Of a stretch of DNA of 64,000 bases, positions 2,607 to 56,184 are shown one piece after another (within the stretch, counting starts at the first letter, position 1; each line of letters begins with the position of its first letter). The notes under the pieces are model-generated. The model was not told the DNA's origin. It did not search any database and worked only from the letters and a program-made list of their open reading frames with translations. This DNA comes from Owenia fusiformis (lineage: Eukaryota; Annelida; Polychaeta; Sabellida; Oweniidae), in the NCBI GenBank assembly GCA_903813345.2, contig CAIIXF020000011.1, forward strand, positions 687,001-751,000. Direction: 5' to 3'. The position numbers were made by a program, and so were the translations under genes.

Positions 2607-2612
2607 GATCCG
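2607..2612. repeat. Left target site duplication of the Polinton
   Basis: GATCCG directly precedes the left inverted repeat and is repeated exactly after the right one at 11819-11824. Confidence 0.93.
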
Positions 2613-2758
2613 AGTAGTTAGAAAAAAGGGGCTTTCAACCATCTTTTATACAGAACTCTATGGAAGGGTGATAATTATAAGTAGGGGGATATTAAAGGGT
2701 ATTCCCCTTTAATCAACTACGTCATCGAGGGGATTCCCATGTTTCATCAATCTGGTTT
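2613..2758 (+). repeat. Left terminal inverted repeat of the Polinton
   Basis: This is the reverse complement of 11673-11818 with a handful of differences, mostly near its inner end. It ends inward at about 'caatctggttt'. Confidence 0.92.
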
Positions 2759-3090
2759 TATATTTGGAAACCGTGACTTCAGACTATCATAGAATGTTCT
2801 GTAAATTAAATTTGCTAAGTGTGAATGTTTTATCTTGAGGCTTATATTCTACATGATCCTAAAATACTGAAGTATACAGAATGATTCCATTTCGTTTTGC
2901 AAAAGGGTATTCCCTGTTTTCATCAACTACGTCAACGAGGAGATTTCCGGTTTAAACTGGTTTAAACCATGACTTCAGGCTGTTTTAGAATACTCTTTAA
3001 ATTAAAAACTTACCAAGTTATGAATGTTTTATCCAACATGATTCTCAAATACTGTACTATTTAGAAAGATTCCAATTTTTGCTTTGTATT
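2691..3090 (+). repeat. Direct duplication of the subterminal region inside the Polinton
   Basis: About 200 bp starting 'taaagggtattcccctttaa' (2691-2885) recurs in diverged form at about 2901-3090. Both copies carry the words 'caactacgtca', 'gtgacttcag' or 'atgacttcag', and 'gaatgttttatc'. The first copy overlaps the inner part of the left inverted repeat. The second is older-looking. The right end has no such second copy. Confidence 0.75.
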
Positions 3091-3795
3091 ATAGGCCTTC
3101 ACAATGCCATTCATAGTTATCAGCTATACGTGTGTCTACAATCTAATAATAAACAGACTTTGACCTGTAAGCAAATGATTAACTTATACATGTTTCCAGG
3201 CCAAACACGTTTATGTTATGACTGTAAAGCGGGATTATTTGTGTTACATTAAACTGGTAAAGTAGTGTTTATAAGCTAGTGCAGTATTTACTAAATACCA
3301 TACTGAATACACTCTATGTAAAAGACTACGCATATATAAGAATACCCTAATAATTGCATATGTTGTACATAAACTTATTTGAAATATCATCATTATAAAT
3401 AAATGTAATACATTCAACCTTATTTAGATGTACCTAAGCTTTGAAAAACATGACATCATTTTAGATTTTACTATAAAAATAGCATATCTATAATCAAACA
3501 TCCTGTGAAGCGAAAAAACCTCAAGGCCACCATATAACATATGTTACAAATACATGTACTATTTAAACCTTCAGTGATCTTTGATCAATTGGAAGCAAAC
3601 TACGCATTTTACTATCCTAGGTAATCCTGGAGAGTCATTATATCCATTTAGAAATAGAATCATCTATTTGAGGGATGAGGGATTATCAGAAATGGATAGA
3701 TTTAATTATTCAAAAATGTTAATTAGCGATTGATTATCAGACAGATCCTAGACTTCTTATGATCCGATATATATCCAGTTCCAACCGGATCAATC

Positions 3796-3825
3796 CAGAT
3801 ATAAAAACTAAGTATAAAAATCCAA
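3796..3825 (+). promoter_or_regulatory. TATA-like boxes upstream of the polymerase region
   Basis: Two 'tataaaaa' words lie about 70-100 bp before the first methionine of the polymerase region at 3894. They could serve as a core promoter. The region is AT-rich, so this is weak evidence. Confidence 0.3.
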
Positions 3826-3893
3826 CAGCAACACCGATTGCTCATTTCATAGTATTTGTTGGAAAGGAGCACTACTAAGGAGAAAACCTGAAG

Positions 3894-6800
3894 ATGCCTG
3901 CAGCAGACCATTCTAATTACGAGTGCCACTGTGGAAAGAGATTCAAACATGCAAGTAATTTGTCGAGGCACAAGAGGCTGGAACATTCTCATGACAATAT
4001 ACAATATCAGTGTCATTGTGGGAAAACCTTTAATAGAAAGGATAGATTGACAAGACATGAGCTTACACATAATGGAGTTGAATACAAATGTGATAAATGC
4101 AATGCGAAATTTAACAGAATGGATAATTTAACCAAGCACAAACGTACACATGTACAAGTCGGTGGTGGTGTTGATCCAGACTTGGCACCAACACACAATC
4201 AGACACAGCAATTTGATTCAAGCCCCTTGGATCAGCCTAAAAAAGACAAAACAGATTTCCCAAATCATACATTAGAATCTGAGATATCAAATACGCCACT
4301 AGAAAATGATCAGGATAACGAGCCTGAAGAATGCAACTTTGAGGAGGAAGCAGTGAGTGGAACATTAAAGACTGTGACATTCAAAGCCATAGGATTATCA
4401 AAGTTTGATCCACTCCGATTCATGAAAGAAAAAGAAGCTAGGATTAAAAGCGCACTTCTAAAGCAGATGAAAAGAAAAGGTGGGATAAAGTGGTATGGCT
4501 CTATACAAGTGCAGTTTAGGAAGGAAAATAAAGAAAGGATGGATATAGCTAAACCCCACTTCCGAGGTCATTGTCACATAGCTATGAAGCCTGAGGATTT
4601 CAATGAAGCTTGGAAGGAAACAGTTAAAAAGATGTATGACTCGTTTATCAAGTATCAAAGGGAAGGTAGTAATTGGTTATTGGATTTTGTGATGAACTTT
4701 ACATTGCATATGATCATCTGGAAACCAATCCGAGGATCAAGCTATATCAAAACTCCACTTAAGTTACGATACAAGGGTGCAATTGTTAATGTGAAGAATA
4801 GAGACAAAAAATGTTTCCTCTGGTCTGTGTTGTCATCACTTTATCCAGCAACAACTCACTCTGATCAAGTATCAAAATACAAACAGTATGCATCGTCTCT
4901 AAATATGGATGGTATAACTTATCCTGTCAAGTTGACAGATATACCAAGATTTGAGAATAACAACAATATCTCTGTAAATGTCTTCGGATTTGACAAAGAG
5001 GTGTTCCCCTTACATATTACAAAGCAGAAATCGGATAAACACGTAAATCTGATCATATTCTCAAATAAGAGGGGTAGCCATTATTGCAGCATTAAGAATA
5101 TGAGCAGATTACTAAGCCACACCACAAAACATAAGTGCAAAATGTTCTTCTGTGATTATTGCCTTCATGGGTTTTCAAAGGAAAGTCTACTTGTGGAACA
5201 TGTAAAGTATTGTGAAATGTATGGCCCACAAAGAATAGAAATGCCGTCTGAAGAGAACAAGTGGCTAGAATTTAAGGATACCGCAAAACAATTGAAAGCA
5301 CCTTGGGTGATATATGCAGATTTCGAAAGTTGCTGTGAGAAAATACAAAGTTGTCAACCAGATCCAAGTCAGTCCTACTCTGACAAAAGAACCATACATA
5401 CACCGTCTGGATTCTCATATAAAGTAGTGGGTCCCACATCAGAGCATAATCAACCATCTGTTGTATACAGTGGAGAGAATGTCACAGATACATTTATACA
5501 GCATATGGTGAAAATACAAGATAGAATAGACCTATGGTATAAAAACACCAAACCCATAGACATGCAGCCTGAAGATTGGTCTGCTTTTCGCAAGGCTGTG
5601 AACTGTCACATATGCAACAAGCCAATGGGGGATGACCGCGTCAGAGATCACGATCATGTGACAGGGAAATTTAGAGGTGCTGCACACAATACATGCAACA
5701 TAAATTTCAAGTTTAGAGGCAGAATCCCAGTAGTCTTCCACAACCTGAAGGTAATTGTCTTCTTTTAAAAATGAATAATATAGTACTCAAATACATCTTG
5801 ATCTATATGAAAAAATAGTCTCTATATCTAATTTTTGATTTTCTATTTTCTAATATAGTATTAATACATATTGATCTGTACGAAATACATGTAGTCTCTA
5901 TATCTAATGTTGATTTTCATATTTTGCAGAATTATGATGCTCACTTGATAATGAAGAGTATAGGAATGTATCAACATGGGCGACTGAGAGTTATACCTAC
6001 GAATATGGAAAAGTATATCAGCTTTTCAATGGGAAGTATGGATTTCATTGACTCATACCAATTTCTCAATGCCTCGCTTGGAAGACTTACTGACAATCTG
6101 GTTCAAGAAGGGAAAGAAAAATTCAAGCATTTATCCAACGAATTTTCTGATGATGAAACATTGAATTTGCTTCTGAGAAAAGGGGTGTTCCCATACAGCT
6201 GGTTTGACAGTAGGGAAAAGTTTGAAGAGATGGGCCTTCCTTTGAAAGACAATTTCTACAATGATCTTAACGACCAGCATCTCAGTCAAGAAGACTATGA
6301 TCATGCTCAATGTGTTTGGTCACATTTTAAGATGAAGACATTTGAAGATTATCACAATCTTTACATGAAAACAGATACTCTTCTACTTGCTGATGTGTTT
6401 GAGAACTTTAGAGAGTTGTGCCTTGATCTATATGGTTTAGATCCTGCTCACTACTATACAGCTCCAGGTAAGTTATAGAATACTTTGATCTTAGATATAT
6501 AGAATTGATAAAATAAATGTTAAATTAGGATATAATGAGAATCATAAATATTATAAAACACCTTACATTTTTCAGGTCTAAGTTGGGCTGCTGCTCTAAA
6601 ATACACAGGGGTGAGACTCGAATTACTAACTGATCCTGACATGTATCTATTTGTGGAAGCTGGATTGAGAGGAGGAATATCTATGATATCGCATAGACAT
6701 GCAAGAGCAAACAATCCATACCTCCCCGAATATGACCCAACAAAACCAAACTCATACATTAGTTACATTGGTAAGTTACTTTTGGTAAACTCAAATTTGA

Positions 6801-8393
6801 TATATACCTTATTAGGTTTAATTAATAGTAAGGTCTGATAACTTATTCCTTAAGAAGAGGGTTAAGAATAGACAATTACCTCTTGTTCAACCCATTTTAT
6901 AATGTTAAAACCACTATAAATCATTATACTATAAAAAAAATATATATATAAAAAAAACATAGACAAATAAAATATTCTCAATAAAAACTTATTCATTTAT
7001 GGTTTCAGATGCAAATAATTTGTATGGTTGGGCCATGAGCAAGCCACTTCCGACACAAGGTTTTAAATGGCTAAAAGAAGAGGAAATGGATGACCTTAAC
7101 ATCTGTGATATTGATGAAGATTCAGAAGATGGCTATATATTGGAAGTTGATCTGGACTATCCCCAAGATCTACATGACAGTCATTCTGATTACCCGTTAG
7201 CACCAGAAACAATGGTTATCAACAAGGATTTGATATCTCCATTCTGCCAAGGACTAGCTGAAGATCTTGCACTTGGTGGAACCCCTACCAAAAAGCTAGT
7301 ACCAAATCTAATGGATAAGAAGAACTACATAGTTCATTACAGAAACCTCCAGCAGTATATTAAGTATGGGTTGAAACTGCGTAAAATCCATAGAGTGATG
7401 ACCTTTAAACAGTCCAGGTGGCTAAAGTCATACATTGATCTGAATACCAATAGACGTAAACTCGCCAAGAATGACTTTGAAAAAGATCTATTCAAGTTAA
7501 TGAATAACAGGTAAGTAAGAAATTTGAGTTTAGTTTGTATAACTCGAGAAAAATACTCTGATTTGAAATATTTATATATAAAAAATATATATATATAATT
7601 AGTCTAACCATACTAATACAGATTCTTTTATTTTAGCGTCTTTGGCAAGACGATGGAGAACCTTAGAAAACGCCGTGACATTGAGTTGGTTAACAAGGAG
7701 AGGAGGCTTCATAGATTAGCGTGTAAACCCTCATTCCACGCGTTCAGCATATTTACTGAAGACCTAGCAGCAGTTGAGAAGTTGAAGACAAAGCTCTATC
7801 TTGACAAACCTATCTACTGTGGATTTACTATCCTTGACATCAGTAAAACACTGCTATTTGATCACCATTATGGATATATACTACCAAAATATGGTAAAAA
7901 TGCCACGCTTTGCTTCACTGATACAGATTCACTTTGCTATTACATCAAAACTGATGATCTCTACAGAGATATGAAGGGTGACATGGCCTTGTATGACACA
8001 TCAAACTTTTCATCTTCGCACCCATTATTTTCGACTGAAAATAAAAAGGTTATCGGAAAATTCAAGGATGAAACTGCTGGAGAACCTCCATTGGAATTCG
8101 TTGGTCTTAAGCCAAAGATGTACTCTCTGCTTGTGGGAGATGAAGTTAAGAAAACAGCAAAGGGCATTAGCAAATCAGTGGTGAAGAATAGCATCACCCA
8201 TGGCGACTATCGAAATGCTATCCTGGAGAGACAATTGAAAATGGCATCAATGAAACAATTCAGGTCATTTAAACATGATATCTTTATGGTGGAATTAAAC
8301 AAGATTGGCCTTAACCCCTATGATGACAAACGCTTTATTCTTGATGATGGAGTTGGTACACTTGCACATGGACATTACAGAATTCAAAAGTGA
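3894..8393 (+). CDS. Polinton type B DNA polymerase region with N-terminal C2H2 zinc fingers
   Basis: The region is several consecutive + strand open blocks between 3894 and 8393, separated by short, very AT-rich gaps with GT...AG-type borders. These look like spliceosomal introns, which some animal Polintons carry. The first block (3894-5768) opens with three C2H2 zinc fingers within the first 90 residues. Later it has the exonuclease-type 'YADFE' motif and a Cys/His 'CHICN...DHDH' zinc-binding stretch that is common in viral and organellar polymerases of this group. Later blocks carry the polymerase motifs 'DANNLYGWAM' and, in the last block, 'DTDSL'. Together these mark a protein-primed-type family B polymerase, which would copy the element. 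The region looks whole and I saw no clear break. The zinc fingers at the front are unusual and may direct DNA or terminus binding; that role is inference. Confidence 0.9.
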
Positions 8394-8428
8394 GAATACA
8401 ATATACTGCTCTTTCCATCTTTCCACCT

Positions 8429-8460
8429 CCTCCTCCTCCTCCTCCTCCTCCTCCTCCTCT
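8429..8460 (+). repeat. (CCT)n microsatellite
   Basis: About ten CCT/CTC triplets lie just after the last polymerase block, between polymerase and ATPase genes. The triplet run opens short spurious frames on both strands. Confidence 0.9.
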
Positions 8461-8596
8461 CTTATTCTAACTGGTATAGCCATTTTGTTAAGTAACTGAT
8501 AATTAAGCCAATCAGATTACAGGATGAAAATATGTAAATTTAAGCCCATGTGTTCTAGATTATGTTCATTCTAAAATAAGATCTTGAAGGAGCAAC

Positions 8597-10120
8597 ATGT
8601 CTTTTACTTGCTTTAAATGTAATATAGACTTCACAAGAAGGGATAATTTGAGCAGACACATGAATCAACTTCATAGAGATTATAAAGATGATGTTGGAGA
8701 TGTTAAGACAGAGATGGTATTAAAACACCCATTTACTTTGATTGCAGCTGGTCCAACATCGTCAGGCAAAACGTGGTTGATGAGGAAGCTAATTAAGCAT
8801 GTAGGAAAATACATAACCCCCACTCCTAAGAGAATAATTTGGTGCTACAGTCAATGGCAACCAGCCTACGAAGAAATGAAGAGCTATCCTGGCTTAGAAT
8901 TCATTCATGGAATACCTGATGAATTAGACAACCCGAGATTCCTCAATACTACCATACCCAATCTCCTTGTATTAGATGACCTCATGGGAGCAGCGACTAA
9001 AGATGAACGCATTTCAGACCTCTATACAAAAGGAAGCCACCATCGGAATCTATCTGTGATTTGCCTCATGCAAAACATGTATCATCAAGGAAAGGAAAAC
9101 AGAACAATGAGTTTGAACTCACACTATTTGATTTTATTCAATAATCCAAGAGATCGTCAGCAGGTGGCACATTTATCAAGACAGATGTATCCAGGCAGTG
9201 GTGGAAAACTTGTAAGAGCATACAACAATGCAACTGATGTACCATATGGTTATTTACTATTGGATTTAAAGCAACAGACACCAGAGCACGAAAGGTTGAA
9301 ACCAAATGCATTTACTTTCGCTGATAACAACTCAGAACAACTCAAGTCTTCTCACTCAGATCAACCAATAGGAAAGCATGTTGATGATGACGTAGCACTA
9401 CAAACTTCAACTGAAATAAATAGCAGCATCACTCAGGGTTTTCCTCATTTGGATCATTGGCATAGAGAAGATAACATGGTATCTTGTGATGATTGTGGAG
9501 TTGTCTTTGAGAGTCTTCATGATCTGCAAAGACATATTCGAAAATGGTGCCCAGAACAGAATGAGTTGCCAGCTTTTAAAAAGAAAAAGATGGATTCAGA
9601 AAATGATGTAGAAAATACTAGCCATTCAACCAAGTGGGAAGTTCTTGGCGATAGTGATGATGATGGTGATAATAATGAAAGTGCAGCAGAAGATGATGAA
9701 GATATAAGAGAAAACAGTACTTATCTCTATTTTAAAGTGAATGCTAGAAAAGAGAATGAAAAACACTTTCAGAGTAAAGTTAATAAGTATTTGGACAATG
9801 GCTTCACAGAACAGGAAGCAGTAGAAAAAGCAGAAGCAAAACTGATGACTCAGGATATTAACCAATTCTTGGATAAATACAGACATTTCATCAAACTCTA
9901 TATACACATTGAAGAGAGTACAGTGCATAGAAAGATCATAGATGCTATTCAAAAGAGGCTCTCAAATGATGTATCAGAGAAAGTCGCTATTAGGAGGGTG
10001 TTGTCCAAGTACAGACATGAATTTGATGAACTGTTTAGCCAGGACTCAGAAAATGAATCAAGTGATAGGTCAAATAGTGAAGCAGAATCTGGTGGAGAGA
10101 CTGATTCAGACAATGAATAA
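8597..10120 (+). CDS. Packaging-type P-loop ATPase of the Polinton, with C2H2 fingers and acidic tail
   Basis: The 507-residue open frame has a C2H2 finger in its first 25 residues (CFKC...HMNQLH). The Walker A loop GPTSSGKT lies near residue 53 and a Walker B-like 'LLVLDDLM' near residue 125. This layout fits the FtsK/HerA or poxvirus A32-like packaging ATPases known in Polintons, which normally pump DNA into capsids. A second C2H2-like finger (CDDCG...HIRKWC) lies near residue 296, followed by an Asp/Glu/Asn-rich stretch and a charged C-terminal domain I do not recognise. Classic Polinton ATPases are about 200-250 residues, so this one is roughly twice as long. It lies 200 bp after the polymerase region on the same strand and 65 bp before the integrase. 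Because no capsid gene is seen, its role may differ from packaging; that is inference. Confidence 0.82.
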   Translation: MSFTCFKCNIDFTRRDNLSRHMNQLHRDYKDDVGDVKTEMVLKHPFTLIAAGPTSSGKTWLMRKLIKHVGKYITPTPKRIIWCYSQWQPAYEEMKSYPGLEFIHGIPDELDNPRFLNTTIPNLLVLDDLMGAATKDERISDLYTKGSHHRNLSVICLMQNMYHQGKENRTMSLNSHYLILFNNPRDRQQVAHLSRQMYPGSGGKLVRAYNNATDVPYGYLLLDLKQQTPEHERLKPNAFTFADNNSEQLKSSHSDQPIGKHVDDDVALQTSTEINSSITQGFPHLDHWHREDNMVSCDDCGVVFESLHDLQRHIRKWCPEQNELPAFKKKKMDSENDVENTSHSTKWEVLGDSDDDGDNNESAAEDDEDIRENSTYLYFKVNARKENEKHFQSKVNKYLDNGFTEQEAVEKAEAKLMTQDINQFLDKYRHFIKLYIHIEESTVHRKIIDAIQKRLSNDVSEKVAIRRVLSKYRHEFDELFSQDSENESSDRSNSEAESGGETDSDNE

Positions 10121-10185
10121 TCACCACAAATATAAACTGTGAACAAACTACTTATCATCATAATAAAAAGAGTTTTCAATGAGGA

Positions 10186-11280
10186 ATGATGTCCTGGAAG
10201 GATCAGTTAGCGAATATCTATTTCCATCCTGACAATGCTGCCAGTTTCAGCGGTCCAGAAAAGCTGTATCGAGCTGCACAAGAGCAGGGGTTGGACATTT
10301 CACGTTATAGAGTGAAAAAATGGTTAGACAGCCAAGAAGCCTATAGCTTGCAAAGACCAAATCAACAGAAATTCCGTCGAAATAAAGTCTATGTGTCTCA
10401 CATTGACCAGCAATGGGATGCAGATTTGATGGATGTGTCCAACATGGCCAAATGGAATGACGAATACAGATATATATTAGTTGTCATTGACATTATGTCG
10501 CGCTTTGCATGGCTGAGAGCTCTGAAAGACAAGAGAGGACAAACTGTAGCTGCCGCATTTGATGATATATTTAAAGAAGGCAGACAACCTGACGTTATAA
10601 GATCTGATAAAGGTCAAGAGTTCAAAGCCCATACTACACAGAGACTATTCAAAAAATGGGGTGTAAGACATTTTGTGACACAAAATTCCCCAAAAGCAAA
10701 TTATGCAGAGAGACTTATTAAGACTATTCGCACTAAAATCAAAAGATATGTAACATATAAACAAAATTATAGATTTGTAGACCAAATGCAGAGTTTTGTA
10801 AATAGCTACAATAACACTTGGCATAGGGGGATAAATATGCCCCCTAATGATGTAAATAAAAATGATGAAATGACTATTTGGTGGCGAATGTATTATCCTA
10901 AAGGTGTTGTAAAAACTAAATCGAATCAAATTTTCAAGTTTCCCATTGGAGCATTGGTAAGAATCACCCATGAAAGATCTATATTTAGTCGAGAGTATGA
11001 TGAGCATTGGACAGGTGAAATATTCAAAGTAGCCAGTAGATTTATCAGACAAGGATTACCAATCTATCGTTTAAAAGATTATAATGGTGACGAGATCACT
11101 GGAACATTCTATCAACCAGAGCTTCAAAGGGTACATATTGATGAAGATAAATTGTGGAAAGTTGAAAAAATTTTAAAAACTAGAATAAGGAGAGGCCAAA
11201 AGGAACATTTTGTTCGATGGCAATTTTGGCCTAAAAAGTTTGATTCATGGGTGAAAGATTCTGACATAACACCATTGTAA
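10186..11280 (+). CDS. Polinton integrase (RVE core) with C-terminal chromodomain
   Basis: The 364-residue frame holds a retrovirus-like integrase core. The acidic residues of the DDE triad appear in the contexts 'QQWDADLMDV', 'VIRSDKGQEF' and 'NYAERLIKTI'. The last 45 residues form a chromodomain ('WKVEKILKTR...EHFVRWQFWPKKFDSW'), which in related integrases steers insertion to marked chromatin. The first methionine at 10186 is followed at once by a second; either could start translation. The gene lies next to the right inverted repeat, as is usual for Polintons, and the intact 6-bp target duplication is the expected product of this enzyme class. It looks whole. A Ty3-type LTR element is ruled out by the lack of gag or reverse transcriptase and by the inverted ends. 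Confidence 0.92.
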   Translation: MMSWKDQLANIYFHPDNAASFSGPEKLYRAAQEQGLDISRYRVKKWLDSQEAYSLQRPNQQKFRRNKVYVSHIDQQWDADLMDVSNMAKWNDEYRYILVVIDIMSRFAWLRALKDKRGQTVAAAFDDIFKEGRQPDVIRSDKGQEFKAHTTQRLFKKWGVRHFVTQNSPKANYAERLIKTIRTKIKRYVTYKQNYRFVDQMQSFVNSYNNTWHRGINMPPNDVNKNDEMTIWWRMYYPKGVVKTKSNQIFKFPIGALVRITHERSIFSREYDEHWTGEIFKVASRFIRQGLPIYRLKDYNGDEITGTFYQPELQRVHIDEDKLWKVEKILKTRIRRGQKEHFVRWQFWPKKFDSWVKDSDITPL

Positions 11281-11672
11281 TTATAAAATGTTTATGTATA
11301 ATCTTTGATATTTTGTGTAAATAAATGAATAGAATATATAAATATATACATTAATGAATGTGTTATGTTTAAGTCAGATTGTGGTGATGTCTAGATATCA
11401 GGAAGATTCAACTATGAGAATAAGGACAGAGATTGTAAAAAAGTAGAATCATACTATTCTGAATTATAATCCAAATAAGCTCCATATTATGCTATCGTTA
11501 TATCAAATGCCCTGATACACTGATTGAAAAAAAAAAGATGTTGTTGTTCTTATCAAATTTTCCTAAAAACGAAGAGAATGTCCTTAATTACACTCCTAGT
11601 AACTCGAGATGACCCCTAGTTAAATATATGCATTATTTTATACTAAATGGTTATAACACATAAACCCGGATT
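11281..11672. other. Polinton 3' spacer
   Basis: This AT-rich spacer lies between the integrase stop and the right inverted repeat. It holds 'aataaa' words just after the gene (near 11320), which could act as poly(A) signals. No gene is seen. Confidence 0.5.
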
Positions 11673-11818
11673 AAACCAGATTGTAGAAATATGGGAATCC
11701 CCTCGATGACGTAGTTGATTAAAGGGGAATACCCTTTATTATCCCCCTACTTATAATTATCACCCTTCCATAGAGTTCTGTATAAAAGATGGTTGAAAGC
11801 CCCTTTTTTCTAACTACT
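11673..11818 (-). repeat. Right terminal inverted repeat of the Polinton
   Basis: This is the reverse complement of 2613-2758. It begins inward at 'aaaccagattgtag' and closes with 'ctaactact' directly before the target duplication. Confidence 0.92.
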
Positions 11819-11824
11819 GATCCG
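11819..11824. repeat. Right target site duplication of the Polinton
   Basis: GATCCG directly follows the right inverted repeat and matches 2607-2612 exactly. Confidence 0.93.
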
Positions 11825-14487: not shown

Positions 14488-15039
14488 TATATGTTAGTAA
14501 ATACAGGTGCAATATATAATTTATATGTATATCTATGTCATCTGTCTATACATGCACGTTTAGTGATACATTTGAACAAGATGGTTCTGGAAAGAAAAGC
14601 CACATACACCACAAAAGAAGGACCAATTTGAAAGTAAGTTCATTATTCTCAAGGGTACACTTCAAGTGAAAGCTACATTGCTACAGGGTGGCCTATCATT
14701 CTGAGACAAATGTATTATCCAACGATTGTGATTTTCGAAGCTAAAATATAATATTTTGAGCAGATGGAAATACGTTCCCATGAGATATGTATATATAGTC
14801 AAAAGTGATAACTATTTATTGAGTGTAATGAAACGTATCCTTCGCCAACAATTTTTTGTGTGAATATGAAGAGTCCAAGCATTGCTTTTTTATGTTTACT
14901 GTATAGTTATAGTTATAGTTATAGTTATTTAGCCTTGATATCTATGATTTTTTAAAACAAAATCTCACCGTTAGATTTCGAGCTATTCATGTTTACTCAT
15001 TTTTCTAATTGGAAAACAATGCAAATCTCATTTTTTCAA

Positions 15040-15980
15040 AGGAAAAAATTGAAATTCTAAGACGGTGAAAAATCATTAAAAAATACACAGATTCAGAATC
15101 TGGCAAGCATTTTCCCCTATTTCTCTCCGTTAAGAAGTTTTGTAAGGTGGTGGATCCCTTTAAGTTATCAGGAAGGTAATTTATAAAGAGGATGAAGAAA
15201 AGAGGACCAAGTATTGAGCCCTGAGGTACTCCACAGTTTATAAATCCAGATTCAGATGAGGCTGCTGAATCACCAGCGATATCTACAAAGATCTTTCTAT
15301 CACTAAGATAAGATTCAATAATTTTGAATAACTGTACATGGATACCATAGGATTTTAGCTTATGTAGTAATAGTTTATGCGGAACTTTGTCAAATGCAGA
15401 TGCGATGTCCAAAAATATTGTTTTAGTTGCTTTACCTTGATCAAAATTATATGAAAGAAAGTGCTCAATCGCCAGTAGCTGAGAATGAGTACTATGTCCG
15501 GGTAAGAAGCCAGACTGGTGTTTAAAAAGGGGTTCATTGGTCAAAAGGTGTTTTTATTCGGTCAGCTAGAATTTTTTCTAAAAGTTTTGAAATAGTACTT
15601 AACAATGTTATTGGTCTATAATTTGTAATATTAGTTTTGTTATTTTTCTTGAATATTCGGCAGACGCTTCCAGTCTTCCAACAATTTGGAAATGTTTTAT
15701 TTGTAAAGTATTGATAGTGGTATTGGAATTGTATGAGCAGTTAGTTTAAGCATCCTATTTGTAATCTTATCTGGTCCACAAGATTTAGAAGGATCAAGTT
15801 CCAGTATAAATTTCATGATTTCAAATTGATCAGTTTTAGCTGAAATGAGAAGAAAGTTTGTTCTAAGAGGAAAGTCAGGTAGTGGTCTATAATTTGTGTC
15901 ATCATGGTTTTTATTAACAAAAAAAATGTCAAAAAGGCATTAGCCTTTTCTAAATTACTTGTAAGCGGTGCACCAGTATT
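15040..15980 (-). pseudogene. LINE reverse transcriptase relic
   Basis: On the minus strand an open frame (15005-15544) carries reverse transcriptase motifs: 'HQSGFLPGHST', 'TIFLDIASAFDKVPH', then 'GVPQGSILGPLFFILFINYL'. Upstream on the same strand, in other frames, are 'NYRPITLLST' and 'ISKLLEKIL', so there are frame shifts. The expected 'ADD' catalytic block does not follow; the frame runs into unrelated sequence near 15150. This is a dead copy of a CR1/Jockey-like LINE. Its upstream part continues past the palindromic insertion at 15981-16815. Confidence 0.85.
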
Positions 15981-55128: not shown

Positions 55129-56184
55129 ACATCTTAGAAGTTGTGAAATCAGACAGTGTAGATAAGCTTACAGATCATCTCAATCAAGTAGATAGTACTG
55201 GGAGTATCAAGTTTACAGTAGAGCAAGAAACGAACGGGTGTCTACCGTTTCTAGATGTACTTCTTAGTAGAAAGGAAGATGGTTCTTTGAACTGTAGTGT
55301 ATATAGGAAGAAGACTCACACAGACCATTATTTGAACTATTCCAGCCATCTCCCCCTGGTGCATAAACTAGGAGTAGTCAAAACACTAGTTAATAGAGCG
55401 CAGTCCTTAGTTACAGACGACAGTGACAAAACCAAAGAGGTAGAACATATACAGTCAGCTCTTAGTAAATGTGAATATCCTTCAAATATTGTTAAGAAGT
55501 GCAAAGATGACAAAGAAACAGCCTCCTCTAGTGCAGATAAGGAAGATAGGATTGGGTTTACTACTTTACCATATGTCCAAGGTGTAACAGAGAAGGTTAA
55601 AAGAATTTTAAAGAAACACAAGATATCTTCAACCGTTAAACCAGTTAAAACATTAAGGCAGATATTAGTTCACCCTAAAGACAAGCGCAAGTTGCTAGAT
55701 AAGTCAAATGTAGTTTATGAAATACCATGTAGCTCGTGTAAAGAAGTATATATTGGAGAGACAGGCAGGAAATTAGATATAAGACTATCAGAACATAAGA
55801 AAGATGTCTCTGATTGTGGACTGACTAGGTATACAAGAAGTGTTAGGAAAGAAGCCCAGTCATCATATGGGAAATCAGCAGTCACTGATCATGTGCGTCA
55901 GATGAACCATGTAGTTGATTGGGATAACGTCAAGGTTATAGACAATGAAGGTCAGAGAAATAAACGGTGGATAAAAGAGGCAATTTACATAAAGAAAGAA
56001 AAACAGTGTATGAATAGAGACTCAGGCAATCACGAATTATCAAGTTTGTGGAATAAAGTGCTAATTAACTCTCAAGATCAAGTATCAACTTCAAGCAGTT
56101 CGAAAAAGTCAAGCGACCATGCTGGACGAAACGTCACAAATTAAAAAAAAAGGTATGGTTAAGACAAAAGGAAAATATGATTAA
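55129..56184 (+). mobile_element. Penelope-like fragment, plus arm (RT tail and GIY-YIG)
   Basis: The open frame 55143-56144 (333 residues) begins within the reverse transcriptase tail ('DSVDKLTDHLNQVDS', 'NGCLPFLDVLLSRK'). It continues through a linker and ends in the GIY-YIG nuclease with a 'CSSC' pair. In Penelope-like elements this nuclease nicks the target for reverse transcription. The palm and fingers of the reverse transcriptase are missing, so it is 5'-truncated. The last 40 bp, after 'aaaggtatggtt', are shared by both arms and so belong to the element's 3' end. Confidence 0.88.

What the first reader, a model, noticed from the sequence alone, without database searches (positions are those of the whole stretch)
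2613..11818. A young 9.2-kb Polinton-type element without recognisable capsid genes
The ends, the 6-bp duplication and the polymerase, ATPase and integrase set define a Polinton. It is about half the usual length, all its genes run in one direction, and I find no capsid or protease gene. Clean ends and open genes argue that the copy moved in this compact form. It keeps a packaging-type ATPase even though there is nothing visible to package into.
Basis: partly seen in the sequence, partly recalled or inferred. Interest (0 to 1): 0.78.

Follow-up and report, generated by a model that had tools for sequence, protein, structure and literature searches.

The report
Capsid-less Polintons that keep packaging ATPase
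This is one of several copies of a compact, virus-derived jumping element that has no shell genes but whose DNA-packing motor is still preserved by natural selection; the same genome also holds shell-bearing relatives from which it might borrow shells.

Summary
Window 2613-11818 is a 9206-bp element with 149-bp inverted ends starting AGTAGT, a perfect 6-bp duplication (GATCCG), and three same-strand genes: PolB, packaging-type ATPase, integrase (INT). Its 498-Mb genome holds five more copies with these genes, each with its own 6-bp duplication; five of the six are 9.1-10.1 kb, the sixth has a ~19-kb nested insertion. So it is a compact lineage, not a unique deletion. Queries with MCP, penton, PW and protease from a capsid-bearing Polinton of the same genome find nothing in it. 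Related capsid-bearing elements carry penton-PW-MCP-PRO after INT; ours lacks these. Corrections: PolB is split by four GT-AG introns, and the end mismatches are inherited, so they do not date the insertion. The ATPase core is under strong purifying selection (dN/dS 0.04-0.09), like the integrase. Beyond the finding: of 150 ATPase loci examined, 49 are capsid-less with INT, 56 have only PW beside the ATPase, 36 have MCP. Some PW+ATPase elements share this element's ends. Best reading: a transposon lineage derived from a virus-like one, whose ATPase still acts on its own DNA, possibly loading it into capsids of resident relatives; that step is inferred.

The parts
2607..2612 (.). left copy of 6-bp target duplication GATCCG
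2613..2761 (+). left terminal inverted repeat, begins AGTAGT = (AGT)2
   Evidence: end motif of vertebrate Mavericks in PMC8097293 section 7
2710..2730 (+). subterminal motif holding ATCAACTACGTCA (copy 1); candidate binding site, function inferred
   Evidence: exact 13-mer in 14 of the 17 loci L009-L025
2920..2940 (+). subterminal motif, copy 2
3894..5750 (+). PolB exon 1: N-terminal C2H2 zinc fingers, a region with candidate vOTU Cys and His, and an Endonuclease VII-like segment
   Evidence: the vOTU placement is by eye, from passages of PMC11071308
5751..5929 (+). intron 1 (GT-AG)
5930..6467 (+). PolB exon 2
6468..6575 (+). intron 2 (GT-AG)
6576..6770 (+). PolB exon 3
6771..7008 (+). intron 3 (GT-AG)
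7009..7510 (+). PolB exon 4 (DANNLYGW; palm motif by recall)
7511..7636 (+). intron 4 (GT-AG); same place and phase in a B-lineage locus (L051), absent in D2 at C3
7637..8393 (+). PolB exon 5 (DTD; palm motif by recall)
8597..10120 (+). ATPase, 507 aa: N-terminal C2H2, A32/IVa2-type ATPase core, C-terminal C2H2, long tail ending acidic
10186..11280 (+). retrovirus-type integrase with chromodomain, 364 aa
11670..11818 (-). right terminal inverted repeat, ends ACTACT
11701..11721 (-). subterminal motif, right end
11819..11824 (.). right copy of target duplication GATCCG

Best explanation
It belongs to a compact Polinton lineage that most likely descends from a capsid-bearing Polinton by loss of the block penton-PW-MCP-PRO that follows the integrase in its relatives. 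It replicates by its protein-primed PolB from (AGT)2 ends and inserts with its own integrase, making 6-bp duplications (inferred from genes and ends; the copies and duplications are shown). Its ATPase is not a relic: selection keeps the core intact in lineages without capsid genes. The likeliest reason is that the ATPase acts on the DNA of the element that encodes it. The favoured action is the ancestral one, pumping that DNA into capsids supplied by capsid-bearing Polintons of the same genome, as satellites do; the packaging step itself is not shown.
For: Six copies with the same three genes and different duplications. Of 49 lineage A+B ATPase loci, 49 have INT, 27 a PolB match, and none a PRO, penton or PW match within 15 kb; one has a 41-aa MCP fragment 11.1 kb away, no other MCP match. 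Nine of nine D2 loci, with a related ATPase (59-61%) and INT (69-70% where in one piece), have ATPase-INT-penton-PW-MCP-PRO on one strand, and two of the nine a PolB match upstream; INT to PRO is the order printed for vertebrate Mavericks. ATPase core dN/dS 0.07-0.09 in A and 0.04-0.05 in B; INT 0.06-0.11 over its first part, 0.16-0.21 whole. The ATPase stands in three capsid-less gene sets: with PolB+INT (27 of 150), with INT (22), with PW (56). PW+ATPase elements with this element's ends lack PolB and INT, yet their ATPase is constrained in 3 of 6 comparisons (p 3e-7 to 3e-6). Capsid-bearing relatives are resident: 77 MCP loci parsed, 75 with penton; 79 of 85 MCP matches have no stop inside.
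Against: No virion, packaged DNA or expression was seen. A and B lack PW, which the small elements keep, so the two classes do not keep one common packaging kit. PW shows no significant constraint (0 of 6 comparisons), and 3 of 6 ATPase comparisons of the small elements were not significant (p 0.06-0.27). Trees do not order A, B and D2, so a single loss is not shown by them. Whether D2 shares ends or packaging signals with A is unknown. The ATPase could serve transposition instead.
Confidence: 0.5

Rival explanations
1. Pure transposon: the ATPase was repurposed for moving or segregating the linear intermediate inside the nucleus, and no capsid is involved. Its fused C2H2 fingers would tether it to the subterminal motifs.
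For: No capsid genes found; introns fit life as a chromosomal gene set; ATPase kept where PW is gone.
Against: The zinc fingers and tail are already present in the ATPase of capsid-bearing D2, so they are no sign of a new job; 56 of 150 ATPase loci keep PW, a gene of the capsid block.
Confidence: 0.37
2. Recent deletion product: capsid genes were lost so lately that the ATPase has had no time to decay.
For: Two copies are 99.0-99.5% identical.
Against: A and B share the layout though synonymous sites between them are near saturation (pS 0.84-0.88) while the ATPase core differs at 16-17% of nonsynonymous sites; A and a B locus share intron 4, absent in D2.
Confidence: 0.05
3. Hidden capsid: capsid genes are present but too diverged or intron-split to see.
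For: No library model recognised the MCP even in L064; 1.1 kb upstream of PolB is unassigned.
Against: At 60 aa or more the only frame reaching into 2762-3893 is 115 aa, antisense. The same queries find D2's MCP at 49-50%, penton at 43-44%, PRO at 40-43%, PW at 39-40%, and D2's INT is as close to A's as B's is.
Confidence: 0.04
4. Split genome: PolB+ATPase+INT elements and PW+ATPase elements with the same ends are parts of one multipartite system whose capsid part is still unseen.
For: End type 1 is shared by the window and C10 copies (A) and by C5:11.16M and C2:7.36M (PW+ATPase); type 2 by C2:29.06M and C6 (A) and C5:8.74M (PW+ATPase).
Against: None of the 14 loci found with this TIR has an MCP, PRO or penton match near it; shared ends are equally expected of ordinary non-autonomous partners.
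Confidence: 0.04

Closest known systems
Polinton/Maverick transposons (vertebrate Mavericks, PMC8097293)
   Same: PolB, ATPase, RVE integrase, (AGT)2//(ACT)2 ends, 6-bp duplications; the relative D2 has INT, penton, PW, MCP, PRO in the printed order
   Different: 9.2 kb against 12.7-24.6 kb in intact vertebrate copies; no MCP, mCP, PW or PRO found; four PolB introns where intact vertebrate Mavericks have none
Polintons without MCP in Krupovic et al. 2014 (PMC4028283)
   Same: Capsid genes missing from a Polinton
   Different: Nine of the elements without MCP there also lacked PRO and ATPase, read as concerted loss; here the ATPase is kept under selection. Elements under 10 kb were removed from that set
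Transpovirons
   Same: Capsid-less linear elements derived by loss of the structural module (PMC11071308)
   Different: They encode pPolB-S1H proteins and go with giant viruses; this one has an RVE integrase, showed no helicase family match in PolB, and sits in a chromosome
Phage satellites such as P4 and PICIs (recalled, not looked up)
   Same: Would work alike if borrowed capsids were confirmed: own packaging specificity, helper's shell
   Different: No kinship; packaging in trans is not shown here

Membership tests
Polinton/Maverick | 6-bp target site duplication | tested here: met
   GATCCG; different perfect 6-bp repeats in the other five copies
Polinton/Maverick | TIRs with (AGT)2 or (AG)3 ends | tested here: met
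   AGTAGTTAG at both ends (motif)
Polinton/Maverick | family B polymerase of Polinton type | tested here: met
   exons 4 and 5 match the 1287-aa PolB frame of D2 at 69% and 66%; Pfam DNA_pol_B_2 only 0.0018, below cut-off
Polinton/Maverick | protein priming by a terminal protein | not testable with these tools
   biochemistry; domain inferred only
Polinton/Maverick | retrovirus-type integrase | tested here: met
   rve 3.8e-13 above cut-off, Chromo 4.2e-6
Polinton/Maverick | A32/FtsK-like packaging ATPase | tested here: met
   Pox_A32 and Adeno_IVa2 above cut-off
Polinton/Maverick | cysteine protease PRO (one of four core genes in PMC3671162) | tested here: not met
   no match in the element; nearest genome match 616 kb away
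Polintovirus (capsid-encoding) | double jelly-roll MCP and penton | tested here: not met
   no match in the element; nearest genome matches over 600 kb away; so filed as a Polinton-derived capsid-less element, not as a polintovirus
Transpoviron | pPolB-S1H helicase protein | tested here: not met
   no helicase family match among the PolB pieces in Pfam at E<=1
Capsid-borrowing satellite | own genome found in a helper's particles | not testable with these tools
   needs sequencing of particle DNA
Capsid-borrowing satellite | no capsid genes, a packaging gene under selection, capsid-bearing relatives resident | tested here: met

The most novel reading that the evidence does not exclude
The genome hosts an economy of Polinton satellites: 9-kb PolB+ATPase+INT elements, ATPase+INT elements and 4-6-kb PW+ATPase elements, together more numerous among the ATPase loci examined than capsid-bearing ones (105 against 36 of 150), each keeping its own packaging motor so that its DNA is loaded into shells made by the capsid-bearing Polintons. 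They would be shell-borrowing satellites of an integrated virus lineage of what is probably an animal, a kind I did not find in print.
Probability: 0.35. Interest if true: 0.87.

Novelty: new variant of a known kind. Interest (0 to 1): 0.63.

Why it matters
Polintons are argued to be viruses because they encode capsid proteins, yet their particles had not been observed (abstract of PMC8097293, seen in the listing). A genome in which capsid-bearing and capsid-less kinds live side by side, with the packaging motor under selection in the capsid-less ones, makes the question testable: if capsid-less kinds turn up in particles, particles exist and satellites exploit them; if not, the 'packaging' ATPase has another job in transposition. 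It also shows that a survey filter which drops elements under 10 kb would remove this class, and that Polinton genes can carry spliceosomal-type introns.

Tried and rejected
Peptidase_C5 profile in the genome: no hit, but the control was silent too, so I used the genome's own PRO. IMG/VR scans with the ATPase, INT and an MCP piece found no relatives. AlphaFold of the ATPase alone gave pLDDT 36.8 and is not interpreted. PDB sequence searches with the MCP piece (one galectin at 0.0065, taken as chance) and the ATPase (mostly zinc fingers) were no help; PHROGs was run on six window proteins and NCBIfam on seven proteins of L064, L011 and the window, and neither bears on the capsid question. Trees: in the ATPase tree A is not one clade in most bootstrap trees; in the concatenated tree B+D2 stand together at 58/32, A+B held together gives p-AU 0.503, A+D2 0.212. 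So one loss versus two is undecided by trees; the shared intron 4 favours one. Rejected: unique internal deletion; capsid hidden in the ATPase tail; arm divergence as a clock. L016 and L022 have one TIR-like end each and no PolB, ATPase or INT match.

The neighbourhood counts rest on start coordinates that I retyped from search lists. Rows left out: ATPase 9 of 159 matches, not listed by the tool (and only 150 of 257 first-look candidates were scored); MCP 7 of 85 (six second pieces and the 41-aa fragment C9:15851578; put back); INT 25 of 138 (second pieces; and only 112 of 503 candidates were scored); PolB exon 4 2 of 39; PolB exon 5 32 of 65 (second pieces and weak hits); penton 2 of 86; F-type PolB 17 of 37. 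PRO (65) and PW (119) were entered whole. Group letters A-G are mine, by ATPase similarity, frame length and, for some D3 members, neighbours; the counts by gene content do not depend on them.

Full report
WHAT IS THERE. The element at 2613-11818 has 149-nt inverted ends at 97% complementarity, begins AGTAGT and ends ACTACT, and is flanked by GATCCG on both sides. Three genes lie on the + strand. PolB has five exons (3894-5750, 5930-6467, 6576-6770, 7009-7510, 7637-8393); each gap begins GT and ends AG, and by eye the frame goes on across each, in phases 0, 1, 1, 2. PolB carries N-terminal C2H2 fingers and an Endonuclease VII-like segment. The ATPase (507 aa) has a C2H2 finger, a core that passes the cut-offs for poxvirus A32 and adenovirus IVa2, and a second C2H2 in a long tail. 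The integrase has a chromodomain.

COPIES. A search of the whole genome with the left 288 bases gave 52 matches. Six elements carry all three genes: window; C10:15006312-15016433 (10,122 bp, about 1 kb extra in intron 1); C2:29062177-29071248 (9,072); C6:18551986-18561585 (9,600; a frame shift in PolB exon 1 and one stop in the ATPase); C4:8647561-8657469 (9,909); C4:10906197-10935107 (28.9 kb, PolB exon 5 split by an insertion of about 19 kb; the 10 kb of it in L020 have no ORF of 150 aa). Their duplications are GATCCG, ATAGTC, TTCAAG, GTCATA, GACCTT, TATAAT. Window and C10 are 99.0-99.5% identical over long blocks; the others are 87-91%.

NOT A HIDDEN CAPSID. Ten kb around a distant ATPase (L064) turned out to be a capsid-bearing Polinton: penton-like gene, small basic protein, MCP (frame split), PRO, INT, 238-aa ATPase, and PolB on the other strand. 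The names rest on the order printed for Mavericks (INT, mCP, PW, MCP, PRO; [quoted passage not shown] no library model recognised the MCP. I call the small basic protein PW by position. None of these proteins matches the window element or the loci of other A copies given (L009, L012, L015, L017, L019, L021) at E<=1; PW matches four small elements, and one MCP piece matches L023 at E 0.99, taken as chance.

NEIGHBOURHOODS. I set 150 ATPase matches (of 159 found) against matches of MCP, PRO, INT, PW, penton and two PolB types (parsed). Within 8 kb: 56 ATPase+PW only; 27 ATPase+PolB+INT; 22 ATPase+INT; 36 with MCP; 6 ATPase alone; 2 ATPase+PRO; 1 ATPase+INT+penton+PW. Lineage A (ours): 6 of 6 PolB and INT. 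Lineage B (ATPase 69-76% identical to ours): 43 of 43 INT, 21 of 43 PolB. Of these 49, none has PRO, penton or PW within 15 kb, and one has a 41-aa MCP fragment 11.1 kb away. D2: 9 of 9 ATPase, INT, penton, PW, MCP, PRO in that order on one strand; PolB upstream in 2 of 9 by these queries. The capsid queries see D2's genes at 39-50% identity, and D2's INT is as close to A's as B's is, so a capsid of similar age in A or B should have been seen. The lists are capped and start from our ATPase, so distant capsid-bearing Polintons are undercounted: only 37 of 77 MCP loci have a listed ATPase within 12 kb.

DIRECTION. A and B have D2's layout minus the genes after INT. D2's ATPase already has both zinc fingers and the tail. 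At intron 4, the PolB matches of D2 at C3 lie 21 bases apart, the seven codons expected without an intron, inside one 1287-aa frame. In the B locus L051 an acceptor stands at the same place and phase; B locus L033 has a GTAAGT donor inside the ATPase gene just before the Walker A motif, where A and D2 read on. Intact vertebrate Mavericks have no introns (passage). So introns look gained in the capsid-less branch; loss in D2 is the alternative. Trees do not order A, B and D2.

SELECTION. Nei-Gojobori on the 185-codon ATPase core: 0.070, 0.093, 0.068 within A; 0.049, 0.040 within B; window and C10 are identical. Tail: 0.21-0.43. INT, first part: 0.057-0.112 where measurable, one pair with no nonsynonymous change. 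Whole INT in A 0.16-0.21; PolB exons 0.06-0.15. Between A and B synonymous sites are near saturation. The ATPase core is at least as constrained as the integrase. Among the ATPase+INT copies without PolB, 4 of 6 pairs show constraint (p 3e-4 to 0.013), 2 have too few changes.

SMALL ELEMENTS WITH THE SAME ENDS. C5:11161842-11167971 (6.1 kb), C5:8742862-8747264 (4.4 kb) and C2:7356484-7365482 (9.0 kb with an insertion) have this element's ends and duplications CTGTCA, GCATCA and AACATT (the last read by eye after trimming two bases from the printed alignment). With C9:33769641-33774202, whose outer ends were not reached, they hold PW and a different ATPase (38-39% to ours) and no PolB, INT or capsid match. 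The other three align to the first along PW and ATPase in one order. Their ATPase is constrained in the three comparisons with C9 (dN/dS 0.13-0.18 over 332-333 codons, p 3e-7 to 3e-6), not significantly in the other three; PW in none of six. Two end subtypes each include both kinds, as expected if A's PolB and INT serve them in trans. For groups C, D3 and E (49 loci) only coordinates were seen; their ends were not read.

READING. Shown: a multi-copy capsid-less Polinton lineage; the capsid block present in D2 and not found here; introns by sequence; constraint on the ATPase; resident capsid-bearing Polintons; small partners with shared ends. Inferred: direction of loss, protein-primed replication, integration by its own INT, and above all why the ATPase is kept. 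Borrowed capsids explain both the ATPase in all these classes and PW in the small ones; a transposition role explains the ATPase only. I put 0.5 on the whole best statement and 0.35 on the bold satellite reading.

PRINT. Library searches showed me no description of capsid-less Polintons that keep the ATPase under selection, or of PW+ATPase elements; I saw listings, not all papers, and most subscription papers are not held. Seen: passages and sections 4-5 of PMC4028283; passages and sections 7 and 13 of PMC8097293; passages of PMC11071308, PMC3671162 and PMC10294476. The 2014 survey gives 46 full and 13 split MCP genes in 72 Polintons, hence 13 with none (my subtraction); nine without MCP also lacked ATPase and PRO, and elements under 10 kb had been removed.

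Noticed in passing
G000 C1:21999397, C2:22060009, C6:19982925, C7:2566026, C9:20776857, C10:14050107, C12:24101712: Seven loci carry two intact PW frames (136-150 aa) facing each other 1.7-3.0 kb apart, with no listed ATPase or MCP match within 8 kb: PW seems to lie inside long inverted repeats.
   Followed up: partly
L024 (C7:35338300-35342400) and L025 (C124:583900-586700): Elements whose fetched inverted ends are 99.8-99.9% identical over 649 and 951 bases share the subterminal motif but gave no ATPase, PolB, INT or PW match; their outer ends were not reached.
   Followed up: partly
G000 C1:17745899 and ten more with a 475-aa ATPase frame: ATPase+INT loci, most of them near-identical, without any PolB match within 15 kb: possibly another reduced class.
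   Followed up: partly
window 2708-3006: The inner part of the left TIR is repeated about 200 bp further in, so the left end carries two copies of the ATCAACTACGTCA motif and the right end one.
   Followed up: partly
window 55143-56144 and 15005-15544: A 333-aa frame with a GIY-YIG-like stretch and a reverse-transcriptase-like frame (motifs recalled): probably pieces of retroelements.
   Followed up: no
window about 8425-8465: Simple repeat that reads as a serine run in one frame, just after PolB exon 5.
   Followed up: no
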